A stretch of 64,000 nt of DNA from an uncultured Mesonia sp. GTDB taxonomy: Bacteria; Bacteroidota; Bacteroidia; Flavobacteriales; Flavobacteriaceae. The stretch spans positions 186,001 through 250,000 of the forward strand of contig CANMOY010000003.1 of assembly GCA_947499595.1 (NCBI GenBank). Reading direction: 5' to 3'. The translations under genes were made by a program, and so were the position numbers. Within the stretch, counting starts at the first letter, position 1; the number at the start of each line of letters is the position of its first letter. Positions 38,667-41,715 of this stretch are shown piece by piece. The notes under the pieces are model-generated. The model ran no database searches. It worked only from the letters and a program-made list of their open reading frames with translations, and was not told the DNA's origin.

Positions 38667-39642
38667 CTAATTAAAAAACCATTGCCAATTGAACCATGAA
38701 AGCAGATGATTTTCTTATTTGCTTTGAAATTTGACAAGATAGGTTTGGTGCTTTATTTAGGGTACGACCAATCGATAGCAACAAAAATAAGCAATAGAAT
38801 TAAATAAACATTGCCCTCAGACCTTTCACTTTCGCCTTGACCTGCGCAATCAAGTCTTTTCATTATGCTCACGAAGGGGTCGCTTTAAGCAGTGGCAACC
38901 GACTCAACACCTGATGACTTTAACCAAAATCAATCAAACATCCCTTTGCTGGTACCGCCTCGCTTAGCATTTCTTGGCGATAGGGAAGCCTATTTAAGCC
39001 ATAAAAATCGCTTAAAATACCCGGGGATACGCCATAGCTACCTCGATGCTAGCTCGATACTCCTTCGATAAAACATCGATAAATCCTTATATTTCGAGGG
39101 ATGAACGAAGAAGTACCGAAGGAGTTACGAAGCAGGTATGCTTTTAGCTTGCATTTTGTAACCCCAATTATCATCCTAAACCATAGGTGAGCGAGCAATA
39201 TTTTATACTCATTCAATTTTGTGGGAGACGGACGTTTAATGCAATTGCCATGGAGATAAAATGCTCTGGACAGTGAAAAGGGTTAAAAATTCCGGTTGCA
39301 ACCGATTAAAATGCCGCTTAAAATTAGCTTTATAACTAACTGATTACTAGCCAGTAGGGAATCTTACGAGTAAACTCGGAAGATTTTCGGGTAGACGCAT
39401 AAAATTCTGTTTGAAACTCAATAAATTCTGCTTTAAACTCGTAAAATTTAAACCGGTATTCTTTGCTTAAGTCTCTAGTTTAGCGCTAGGTAAATAAAAA
39501 AGAACTAGCATGACTTAGCTTTAGAACAACCACCGAGAGACCAAGTAAGAAGCAGTTTCAACCTTTGCTGCTACCACAGCTTACCCAAGGTAAGCGCTCT
39601 CCCGACCGCAAAAGGTGTATTTTAATTAAAACACATTTTATT
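38667..39642. other. Long non-coding region upstream of the HU-like gene
   Basis: No credible frame. Visible structure: nested dyads at 39041-39125 (CCTCGA with TCGAGG; ACTCCTTCG with CGAAGGAGT); degenerate ~21-bp tandem units with ATAAATTCTG and TTTAAACTC between 39368 and 39454; and an AT-rich dyad GTGTATTTTAATTAAAACAC at 39615-39634, just before the HU-like start, that could be an operator. None of the A-E repeat modules is found here. Confidence 0.6.
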
Positions 39643-40038
39643 ATGAGTAAAAATATACTCGCAAAATTAAAAGTTAGAACACGTAAGAACCCTCAAGATC
39701 CAACCGCTGCGCCGCTGTATTATCTACAGGCCGTAAGCACTGGCACCTGTGATCTTGACCGACTTGCGTATTTAATTTCCAATCAGTCAACCGTGCGTGA
39801 ACCCGATTGTTTAGCCGTTTTACACGCTTTTGTACATAATATGCTCGATGAGTTAGAGCAAGGGCGTATTGTAGAATTAGGACGCTTGGGCAATTTTCAA
39901 ATTGGCGTAGGCTCAACCGGTAGTGTTTTAGCCGAAGACGTAAGTTTAAGCAATATCAAGCGTATAGCTTTAAACTACCGTCCCAGCAAACATGTGAAAA
40001 AGCGCATTAACAGTATGGACTTCAGTCTAACCGAATAA
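39643..40038 (+). CDS. HU-like DNA-binding protein (HU-HIG type)
   Basis: A 131-residue protein beginning MSKNILAKLKVRTRKNPQDP, with a HU-HIG/Bacteroidota HU-like layout. A leader with YYLQAV is followed by two helices (RLAYLISNQSTVREPDCLAV) and the beta-arm region with GRIVELGRLGNFQIGVGS. Such proteins bind and bend DNA as nucleoid or element-encoded architectural factors. The ATG at 39643 follows an AT-rich dyad; a longer in-frame start at 39565 is unlikely. A strong terminator lies 34 bp after the stop, followed by an unusual palindrome cluster. Confidence 0.85.
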   Translation: MSKNILAKLKVRTRKNPQDPTAAPLYYLQAVSTGTCDLDRLAYLISNQSTVREPDCLAVLHAFVHNMLDELEQGRIVELGRLGNFQIGVGSTGSVLAEDVSLSNIKRIALNYRPSKHVKKRINSMDFSLTE

Positions 40039-40068
40039 AGCGCTCACCGCAGCAAGCGGAAGTTGAAT

Positions 40069-40107
40069 AAACCGCTTGGTCCAGCTTGGATCAAGCGGTT
40101 TTTTTGG
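40069..40107 (+). terminator. Terminator of the HU-like gene
   Basis: AAACCGCTTG pairs with CAAGCGGTTT around a 12-nt loop, followed by T5. Confidence 0.88.
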
Positions 40108-40123
40108 TCAAAAAAGCCAAATT

Positions 40124-40230
40124 TCATGCGCATGATCCATGTAAATCATGCGCATGATTCATGAAAAACATGCTGAAGAATTAAAAAATCATGCTGATGA
40201 TTTACATGAACCTTCAGCATGATTTTTAAA
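40124..40230. repeat. Cluster of CATG-type palindromes
   Basis: TCATGCGCATGA (40124-40135), the perfect 14-bp palindrome ATCATGCGCATGAT (40145-40158) and ATCATGCTGATGAT (40188-40201) lie within 80 bp. The last also forms a ~14-bp stem with TCAGCATGATTTTT (40214-40227). The cluster is downstream of the HU-like terminator and outside any gene. From there to 40455 the sequence is A- and C-rich and shows nothing further. Confidence 0.75.
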
Positions 40231-40454
40231 AACCACTTCTTTCAATTTTTTTTACATTTTCACCCTCCAAAACAAGCTTTTTCAAGCCCAAAACCATCTC
40301 AAAACCCTAAAAAACCGACTGTTTTTGTTCAAAAAAGCACTAAAACGCTAGCAAACACCCCAAAAAAGCAGGATAAAAAACAAATTCAACCGATGAAATA
40401 CAGTTGTTCTTCTCTCTAAATGTCGGTTTTTATTTCAAAAATCAACAAAACCGT

Positions 40455-40680
40455 AGGTGAAACGGCAGGGTTTAAACCGAATTAGTGCGACCTTTCGGGA
40501 GTCCCGAGAATTCGGGATCACTTCGAGTGGGCTAGCTTAGCCAACAGGCATTTATGCCGTAGTTGGACTTGCTGGGTTGTATCGAGAAGTGAATGAAATA
40601 GAACTGAAAATAAACCCGCTACTTTTCGACTTGTTCTCGATACTTCGCATTTTTGGTTTACCACCAAAAATCCGAAACTC
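40455..40680 (+). repeat. Repeat block R4, interrupted by an IS110-type end
   Basis: It contains a short C fragment (around 40484-40517, with GGGAGTCCCGAGAATTCGGG), module A (40518-40592) and module B (40612-40680). Module B stops abruptly at CCGAAACTC, where other copies continue with GAACTGACAAGG. The break point is the junction with the IS110-like sequence. Confidence 0.85.
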
Positions 40681-40752
40681 CTTTAGACTTGCATAAGAGA
40701 AAATATAAAGATAAATAATTAAATTTATGGATGTTTAATTAGAAAAAGAGAG

Positions 40753-40894
40753 CTGAACTTAAGTACACTAACCGCACTCAGAATTTAAAAAATTCATAGT
40801 TCGATTCAGACTTAAGTTCAGACTTTCATCAACAATCTCTAATAGAAATTCGGGATTTTAAGCCCATTATTAAGGAGTTGAGTTATTGATGAAA
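40753..40894 (+). ncRNA. Candidate IS110 bridge RNA (orphan)
   Basis: Two hairpins with internal loops. The first has outer stem CTGAACTTAAGT/ACTTAAGTTCAG (40753-40764 with 40810-40821) and inner stem GAATTT/AAATTC (40781-40795), leaving loop strands of 16 and 14 nt. The second has outer stem TTTCATCAA/TTGATGAAA (40824-40832 with 40886-40894) and inner pairing that includes TAATA/TATTA and GGG/CCC. This two-loop layout upstream of the transposase is that of a bridge RNA with target- and donor-binding loops. AAGGAGTT (40872-40879) in the second loop complements the element's left junction AACTCCTT (40676-40683). Confidence 0.6.
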
Positions 40895-40925
40895 TCCCTC
40901 TTTTCAATAAAAGTATTACAAAGTT

Positions 40926-40980
40926 ATGAAAAGTATTTATTTTGGTATTGACATTAGTAAAAAGAAATTAGATTTTAAAT
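40926..40980 (+). pseudogene. Truncated IS110-family transposase (N-terminus only)
   Basis: ATG followed by codons for KSIYFGIDISKKKLDFK, the first RuvC-like strand with its catalytic Asp (GIDISK) as in IS110/DEDD transposases. After about 18 residues the similarity ends and the frame runs through the upstream region of the response regulator to a stop at 41025. No other part of a transposase is in the window. Confidence 0.75.
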
Positions 40981-40986
40981 TAAATA

Positions 40987-41003
40987 TTAAGTCAATCTTA
41001 AGA
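40987..41003 (+). promoter_or_regulatory. Operator-like box upstream of the response regulator
   Basis: TTAAGTCAATCTTAAGA matches 15 of 17 bases of the box at 43354-43370 ahead of the efflux pump. It lies 44 bp before the regulator's ATG, which suggests autoregulation. A -7-like TAACTTTTG is at 41034-41042. Confidence 0.6.
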
Positions 41004-41046
41004 AAAACCCAACCTAAACTTAAATGAAAATTGTAACTTTTGTATC

Positions 41047-41715
41047 ATGAGAATTTTAATAGTAGAAGATGAGCCAGGAATATTTAATTTCCTAAAACAA
41101 GGCTTAGAAGAGGAATCTTACGCTGTAGACGTAGCCGAAGAAGGTAAAAAGGGGCTTGAGATGGCACTTTCAGGAGAATATGATTTGCTTTTGCTAGATT
41201 GGATGGTTCCAGGAATTAGCGGCATTGAAATCTGCCGTCAATTCCGTAAAGAATTTCGCGAAACTCCGGTTATTTTTCTAACAGCAAAAGATACATTAGA
41301 CGAAACCGTATTTGGCCTTCAAGTTGGCGCCAATGATTACATTAAAAAGCCTTTTCATTTTGAAGAACTCCTCGAACGCATTAAGGTGCAATTACGTCCA
41401 AAAACTGGGGAACATTCAATATTTAAACTTGGTAATATCACACTTAATACCGCAACTCATCAAGTTTTTAAAAATGATGAAGAGATAGCATTAACCCAAA
41501 AAGAATTTGCCTTATTGGAATATCTCATACGAAACAAAGGTTTGGTTTGTCGGCGATCAAGAATCATTGAAAGTGTTTGGGATATTCATTTTGATTATAA
41601 TACTGGGGTCATCGACGTATTCATCAATGCGCTACGAAAAAAACTGAAACTTGGAAAAGAAGAAAATTATATTCAAACCATTAGAGGTGTTGGCTACATT
41701 GCAAAAGAAATATGA
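41047..41715 (+). CDS. OmpR-family response regulator (CusR/CopR-like)
   Basis: A 222-residue regulator. The receiver domain (1-118) has acidic pocket residues (VEDEP), phospho-acceptor D51 in LLLLDWMVPG, the switch Thr in FLTAKD and the Lys in YIKKPF. The C-terminal winged-helix domain (about 125-222) has ALTQKEFALLEYL and the recognition helix before GVGYIAKEI. The position ahead of a heavy-metal pump and the sensor kinase points to copper, silver or cobalt-zinc-cadmium sensing. It overlaps the kinase gene by 4 bp. The same 17-bp box precedes this gene and the pump gene. Confidence 0.93.
   Translation: MRILIVEDEPGIFNFLKQGLEEESYAVDVAEEGKKGLEMALSGEYDLLLLDWMVPGISGIEICRQFRKEFRETPVIFLTAKDTLDETVFGLQVGANDYIKKPFHFEELLERIKVQLRPKTGEHSIFKLGNITLNTATHQVFKNDEEIALTQKEFALLEYLIRNKGLVCRRSRIIESVWDIHFDYNTGVIDVFINALRKKLKLGKEENYIQTIRGVGYIAKEI

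What the first reader, a model, noticed from the sequence alone, without database searches (positions are those of the whole stretch)
40678..40980. Orphan IS110-type bridge RNA left behind by a truncated element
Seen: an 18-codon IS110 transposase start (MKSIYFGIDISKKKLDF) is preceded by two consecutive hairpins, each with a long outer stem, an internal loop and an inner stem (40753-40821 and 40824-40894). The element begins exactly where repeat module B is broken (40680/40681). AAGGAGTT in the right strand of the second loop (40872-40879) is the reverse complement of AACTCCTT spanning the left junction (40676-40683). That is where the donor-loop guide of a bridge RNA should pair. Known: IS110-family elements encode a bridge RNA with target- and donor-binding loops in the non-coding end next to the transposase. 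Inference: the guide RNA has outlived its transposase and could work in trans with a related transposase elsewhere in the genome.
Basis: partly seen in the sequence, partly recalled or inferred. Interest (0 to 1): 0.85.

Follow-up and report, generated by a model that had tools for sequence, protein, structure and literature searches.

The report
Orphan bridge RNA of truncated IS110
A dead jumping gene in a marine bacterium has lost its enzyme but kept the folded guide RNA that once chose its landing site, and comparison with intact copies shows the guide was re-aimed; it is most likely silent debris, though a related enzyme survives in the same genome.

Summary
Window 40680-40976 is the left end of an IS110-group element (host inferred to be Mesonia) with both bridge-RNA loops and only 17 transposase codons. 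A 1,234-bp copy with an intact 327-aa transposase lies elsewhere in the genome, 98% identical over the shared part. Ten relatives show compensatory changes in the fold. Guides match natural insertion sites across the wider family (right side: 22 of 23 sites at least 5/6; both sides 0 of 20,000 shuffles), but the left guide is not significant within Mesonia-type copies.

Orphan and intact copy differ at 7 sites, 4 of them in the 14 guide bases: the orphan's right guide fits one class of the host's dispersed repeat (CGAACT), the intact copy's fits another (CGACAT) and its own right flank.

Action in trans is not supported. The right end is gone, so neither circle nor junction promoter can form; no promoter-like match precedes the RNA (weak evidence); three related full insertions fit their own right guides better than the orphan's. 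A sister genome shares the truncation. Three further loci without transposase occur in two genomes of another genus. Verdict: a real bridge RNA, most likely a silent relic.

The parts
40672..40679 (+). Left target half (CCGAAACT) with core CT at 40678-40679; end of a dispersed host repeat; intact copies printed continue CGAACTGACA
40680..40976 (+). Truncated IS110-group element: left end, bridge RNA region, 17 codons of transposase; 98% identical to the intact copy at G000:C6:78566-79799; right end and right target half missing
   Evidence: same truncation in sister genome, L015
40684..40691 (+). TAGACTTG: -7-like half of a promoter motif that is complete only at the circle junction (TTG-N20-TAGACTTG); the Bacteroidota consensus TTG..TAnnTTTG is recalled
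40753..40821 (+). Target-binding loop hairpin of the bridge RNA
40771..40778 (+). Left target guide (ACCGCACT), 4/8 identical to the left flank
40798..40803 (+). Right target guide (AGTTCG); reverse complement CGAACT equals one class of intact host repeats (8 of 20 pattern matches in this genome)
40824..40894 (+). Donor-binding loop hairpin; loop nearly invariant among relatives
40841..40851 (+). Left donor guide (AATAGAAATTC); shares ATAGAAAT with the element's right end, which this copy lacks
40872..40879 (+). Right donor guide plus handshake bases (AAGGAGTT), complement of AACT|CCTT at the left junction
40926..41027 (+). Transposase stub reading frame: 17 IS110 codons, 16 unrelated codons, stop

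Best explanation
A bridge-RNA-guided IS110-group element inserted after the core CT of a dispersed host repeat in a Mesonia ancestor. A deletion then removed everything from transposase codon 18 through the right end and the right half of the target. The bridge-RNA sequence stayed because it lies at the surviving left end. Shown by sequence: the fold, the guide/target matches across the family, the intact relative, the shared truncation in a sister genome. Inferred: while alive, the recombinase used this RNA to pair the circle junction with ACT|CGAACT repeats; since the truncation the RNA is probably not made, because its promoter is assembled only at the circle junction, so it drifts as a relic. 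The guides of this copy and of the surviving full copy have been re-aimed relative to each other, at two classes of the same repeat.
For: Intact copy in the same genome, 291 of 298 identical; PF01548 and PF02371 in its protein, solved relatives ISCro4 and IS621. Compensatory changes. Variable target loop, near-invariant donor loop. Guide/target match: right 5.43 of 6 against 3.74 shuffled, left 5.39 of 8 against 3.93, each 0 of 20,000. 4 of 7 differences between the two copies fall in 14 guide bases, p 0.0001 (the guide limits were set after seeing the differences). Uninterrupted homologues of the gene hit by the full copy carry GAACT|CGACATAC (L104, L105, L106), so its right flank is native and fits its guide over 7 bases. 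Truncation shared with G015. Right-end TTG at the -33 place in 21 of 22 copies with a readable right end, absent from the orphan.
Against: The orphan's own right target half is lost, so its right guide is tested only against intact repeats elsewhere. Left-guide matches in the nine Mesonia-type groups are no better than shuffled (4.31 against 4.19, 6,627 of 20,000); right-guide matches without G271 and G037 reach only p 0.017 (5 groups). Between the two orphans the bridge part changed at 1 of 215 sites and the remainder at 4 of 82 (Fisher p 0.02), which could hint at constraint on the RNA; the element as a whole changed more than its right flank (5 of 297 against 5 of 1,500, p 0.015). No expression data were available.
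Confidence: 0.85

Rival explanations
1. A trans-acting orphan guide: the RNA is still made and loads onto the surviving transposase, sending circles to CGAACT repeats that the full copy's own RNA does not match.
For: Intact 327-aa transposase with a 98% identical left end; the donor guides are the same in both copies (the one donor-hairpin difference, 40883, lies outside them); both repeat classes are present (9 CGACAT and 8 CGAACT of 20 pattern matches); the bridge part changed less than the rest between the two orphans. The RNA works in trans in published assays (PMC11208160, PMC11187229; passages).
Against: No -33 half, no promoter-like match at 40400-40900 (weak), terminator-like hairpin upstream. 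The three related full insertions fit their own right guides better than the orphan's. The only full copy found in this genome has a left flank that fits its guide at 3 of 8 bases, and PMC11187229 (passage, an IS1111-type element) reports that replacing target bases on either side stops circle formation.
Confidence: 0.07
2. The hairpins have been taken over as a regulatory leader or attenuator for the response regulator gene that starts at 41047.
For: The remnant sits just upstream of the gene on the same strand and is kept in the sister genome.
Against: The hairpins are ordinary bridge-RNA hairpins with element-type sequence. In four other Mesonia genomes with a 66-67% DNA match to this regulator the donor-loop string ATAGAAATT is absent from the upstream DNA held, though those matches may be paralogues. 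No expression data.
Confidence: 0.05
3. Chance hairpins next to an IS remnant.
For: The donor-loop hairpin alone is not outstanding against shuffles (14 of 200), and Rfam gives no match.
Against: Compensatory changes, model matches beyond the ten training rows in other genera, and guide/target agreement across genomes. The window's own match at E 2.4e-35 is by construction.
Confidence: 0.01

Closest known systems
IS621 (IS110 group) and its bridge RNA (PMC11208160, PMC11208158; passages read)
   Same: RNA at the left end upstream of the recombinase gene; two loops, first variable (target), second conserved (donor); core T constant; insertion in dispersed extragenic repeats; promoter-like sequence formed at the circle junction; recombinase homologous (E 3.8e-20)
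   Different: Different host phylum (IS621 is from E. coli); right target guide reaches about 6 nt past the core; target core mostly CT, also TT or GT, donor core AT; junction motif resembles the recalled Bacteroidota promoter rather than sigma-70; the window copy has no transposase and no right end
seekRNA of ISEc21 / ISEc11 (PMC11187229; passages read)
   Same: Guide RNA in the non-coding region; natural re-direction between relatives through changes in the target-matching segments; RNA usable in trans
   Different: There the compared relatives are different elements (transposases 72% identical); here two copies about 98% identical in one genome, one of them truncated
Mini-element L121 in genome G454 (found here)
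   Same: Bridge RNA without a transposase
   Different: Keeps both ends (307 bp), so it could in principle still be moved in trans; its target-loop stem looks decayed (by eye) and its right end lacks the TTG of the junction promoter

Membership tests
IS110-group element with bridge RNA | DEDD (PF01548) plus Transposase_20 (PF02371) recombinase | tested here: met
   Met by the intact copy; the window copy keeps 17 codons only
IS110-group element with bridge RNA | Long non-coding left end with two looped hairpins before the gene | tested here: met
IS110-group element with bridge RNA | Target-loop guides match the flanks of natural insertions | tested here: met
   Family-wide both sides 0 of 20,000; within Mesonia-type groups the left side is not significant; for the window copy the left guide matches 4/8 and the right side could be tested only on intact repeats
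IS110-group element with bridge RNA | Donor-loop guides match the element's own ends | tested here: met
   ATAGAAAT in the loop and at the right end; AAGG pairs with CCTT at the left end, read by eye without a statistic; the window copy lacks the right end
IS110-group element with bridge RNA | Match to a curated RNA family model | tested here: inconclusive
   No Rfam match over any gathering score in the window; I did not check whether Rfam holds a bridge-RNA family
IS110-group element with bridge RNA | RNA is transcribed and binds the recombinase | not testable with these tools
   No reads or assays available
Functional trans-acting orphan guide | Own promoter or read-through transcription | tested here: inconclusive
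   No promoter-like match, terminator-like hairpin upstream; consensus scans do not prove silence
Functional trans-acting orphan guide | Insertions whose flanks fit the orphan guide better than the element's own | tested here: not met
   0 of the 3 closely related full insertions, right side

The most novel reading that the evidence does not exclude
Bridge RNAs without a transposase recur (here an inherited Mesonia case and three loci in two genomes of another genus), and some act as trans guides or as a reservoir of target guides: the Mesonia orphan would redirect the resident recombinase to CGAACT repeats, and the 307-bp element in G454, with both ends and a guide fitting its right flank 6/6, would be a mobile non-autonomous IS110 that brings its own guide.
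Probability: 0.08. Interest if true: 0.8.

Novelty: new member of a known kind. Interest (0 to 1): 0.42.

Why it matters
It gives a compact natural case of guide re-aiming: two copies about 98% identical in one genome whose differences concentrate in the guides and which fit two classes of the same repeat. It also shows bridge RNAs left without a transposase in two genera, which raises a testable question: can such guides be used in trans? Searches of the held library listed no paper that by its title or abstract start deals with orphan or transposase-less bridge RNAs (search 26 listed 25 of 273 papers; search 51, by phrases, returned only PMC11208160). The library lacks most subscription journals and preprints.

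Tried and rejected
Rfam search: no match. Core first read as TC; rejected, because the base before TCCTTTAG varies with the target and the junctions fit a cut after CT (left) and AT (right). Tested whether CGACAT at the right flank of the G015 copies is element sequence; rejected, since intact ACTCGACATGACAAGG repeats are common (22 of 31 pattern matches in G015, 9 of 20 in G000). Left guide in Mesonia-type copies alone: not significant; counting wobble pairs also weakens the smaller left test (p 0.03). Looked for the missing halves of the two genes flanking the full copy: the N-terminal methylase query matched only a paralogue at C10, and the left-flank DNA was found only at C6 itself (G000 and G015). 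A sigma-70-type scan of window 39500-41100 gave 5 promoter-like sites, all on the minus strand, against 3.6 in shuffles.

Rows left out: G713, G738 and G296 (their donor loop lacks the anchor used to place the guides), copies whose loci were not fetched (2 of 6 in G697, 1 of 5 in G604, 4 of 7 in G713), G011 copies (contigs end before the RNA), and sides cut off by contig ends. Values that the script misread or missed (L021, left guide of G271, left flanks of G454, right guide of G478) were read by eye. The shuffles permute guides among groups and do not correct for relatedness. G681 was entered as three groups because its guides differ. In one search the printed left-end column is unreliable (first match in the locus) and was not used.

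Full report
WHAT IS THERE. Window 40680-40976 is the left end of an IS110-group insertion sequence. The window is C3:186001-250000 of a 2.72-Mb, 70-contig genome, G000. The host is inferred to be Mesonia: relatives in its genus group have the same copies, at matching places, as records titled Mesonia. The element follows directly on a dispersed repeat: a 447-base query gave 34 matches in the own genome (40 of 84 candidates scored), 32 of them to the repeat part only. One other copy of the element was found, at C6, 291 of 298 bases identical, with an intact 327-aa transposase. That protein has PF01548 and PF02371; its solved matches are ISCro4 (4.2e-21) and IS621 (3.8e-20). The full copy is 1,234 bp. 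In the window 17 transposase codons remain.

THE RNA. Ten bridge-RNA regions (window, C6, two from G015, G014, G008, G005, Salegentibacter, G037, G271) were aligned. RNAalifold gives two looped hairpins with 28 pairs. 93.2% of cells pair, 12 pairs change on both sides, and 0 of 500 shuffles reach the covariation score; slid controls pair at 23-50%. The target loop varies while the donor loop (AATAGAAATTCGGGA, CCCATTAT, AAGGA) is nearly constant, as published for IS110 (PMC11208160, passages). A covariance model found 14 matches in 6 of 397 family genomes, 10 in 5 of 16 genus genomes and 40 in 13 of 395 order genomes; these samples overlap, and the large searches used stricter filters.

GUIDES AND TARGETS. 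[quoted passage not shown] the top strand is cut after the core; after exchange each loop pairs with the incoming core and two handshake bases. Here the left junction reads (target)CT|CCTTTAG and the right junction ATAGAAAT|(target). Across 23 sites with a readable right flank, in 14 guide groups, 13 match 6/6 and 22 at least 5/6; mean 5.43 against 3.74 when guides are shuffled among groups, 0 of 20,000; the own guide is best or tied in 12 of 14. On the left, 36 sites in 22 groups, register free: 5.39 of 8 against 3.93, 0 of 20,000, own guide best or tied in 8 of 22. Against the reading: in nine Mesonia-type groups (G314 and Salegentibacter included) the left score is 4.31 against 4.19 (6,627 of 20,000), so there the left guide is not shown. 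The shuffle ignores relatedness. An earlier, smaller test gave 2 of 5,040 on the right; without G271 and G037 it gave p 0.017 on the three variable bases. By eye, target core and donor-loop complement agree: most CT-core elements carry AAGGAGTT, while G037 and G271, with TT-core sites, carry AAGGAATT; G697, with a GT core, carries AAGGAGTT, so the rule is not strict.

RE-AIMED COPIES. The orphan and the C6 copy differ at 7 of 297 sites; 4 lie in the 14 guide bases (p 0.0001; guide limits set after seeing the differences). The orphan's right guide reads CGAACT, C6's CGACAT. Intact repeats ACTCGAnnnGACAAGG in G000 number 20: 9 CGACAT, 8 CGAACT, 1 CGAGCT, 2 CGATAT. C6 lies in an Eco57I-type methylase gene (PF07669). 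Of nine uninterrupted homologues printed, L104 and L105 read GAACT|CGACATACAAG there, L106 GAACT|CGACATACATG, L103 GAACT|CGATATACAAG; the other five are more diverged. So C6's right flank is native and fits its guide over 7 bases; by eye the native left half in L104 (ACCGAACT) fits C6's left guide (TCCGGACT) at 6 of 8. C6's actual left flank (another gene, ending ACATTATT) fits at 3 of 8, and the missing part of the methylase gene was not found apart from a paralogue. The left side of C6 is therefore rearranged or misassembled.

AGE AND CONSTRAINT. G015 carries the same truncation with the same downstream flank (98.2% over 1,963 bp), so it was inherited. Between the two orphans 40680-40894 differs at 1 of 215 sites and 40895-40976 at 4 of 82 (Fisher p 0.02); the regulator gene differs at 2 of 669, and the whole element at 5 of 297 against 5 of 1,500 in the right flank (p 0.015). 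The numbers are small and point both ways.

IS IT MADE? In the circle, TTG in the right end stands 20 nt before TAGACTTG in the left end, resembling the Bacteroidota promoter (recalled TTG..TAnnTTTG). The right-end TTG is at that place in 21 of 22 copies with a readable right end, in 13 of 14 elements, the exception being L121 (23 loci given, L118 has no such right end). Several relatives read TAGATTTG at the left end, a full TAnnTTTG match; G008 has an altered left end. The orphan has CCA at the -33 place and no such match at 40400-40900; at 1.2 per kb per strand that absence is unremarkable, and integrated C6 happens to have TTG 18 nt upstream. A terminator-like hairpin stands at 40069-40101 after the HU-type gene. 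The orphan cannot circularise, since its right end is gone. I therefore think it silent; this is inference.

OTHER ORPHANS. Of 39 loci with model matches examined for transposase by tblastn, five with at least 1.4 kb of downstream DNA have none or a stub: the window, its G015 orthologue, L121 and L130 in G454, and L125 in G528 (truncated inside the donor loop). G454 and G528 belong to one genus of another family of the order. That makes at most four independent events. L127 could not be judged, and seven others have only 104-168 bases after the RNA, all with transposase-like sequence. L118 and L132 have broken transposase frames. L121 is a 307-bp element with both ends; its right guide matches its right flank 6/6. 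Whether G454 holds a transposase elsewhere was not tested.

CONCLUSION. A real bridge RNA of a dead IS110-group copy, probably silent. Most of what it shows is known biology; the orphan state in two genera and the re-aimed pair in one genome are the points worth keeping.

Noticed in passing
L010:2567-3800 (G000:C6): The only full copy found in this genome has a left flank from a different gene (minus-strand frame starting MWYTNKNHAAYIKGW, ArdC-like by recall) and a right flank in an Eco57I-type methylase gene; the left junction falls exactly at the element boundary with a TT core, suggesting a deletion at the element end or a misassembly.
   Followed up: partly
L121:1496-1802 (G454:C1): 307-bp IS110 derivative with both ends and a bridge RNA but no transposase; the right guide fits the right flank 6/6; the target-loop stem looks decayed.
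   Followed up: partly
window 40480-40680 and G000 contigs C3, C5, C13: Dispersed, clustered repeat (REP-like) with two main classes at the IS110 target position; the CGACAT class makes up 9 of 20 pattern matches in G000, 22 of 31 in G015 and 1 of 13 in G011.
   Followed up: partly
L015 and window 40952: Site 40952 reads as in the full copies of each genome (C in G000, T in G015), which could reflect gene conversion between orphan and full copy; a single site only.
   Followed up: no
window 40119-40235: Nested ATGCGCATGAT / CATGCTGATGATT inverted and direct repeats between the HU-type gene and the dispersed repeat.
   Followed up: no
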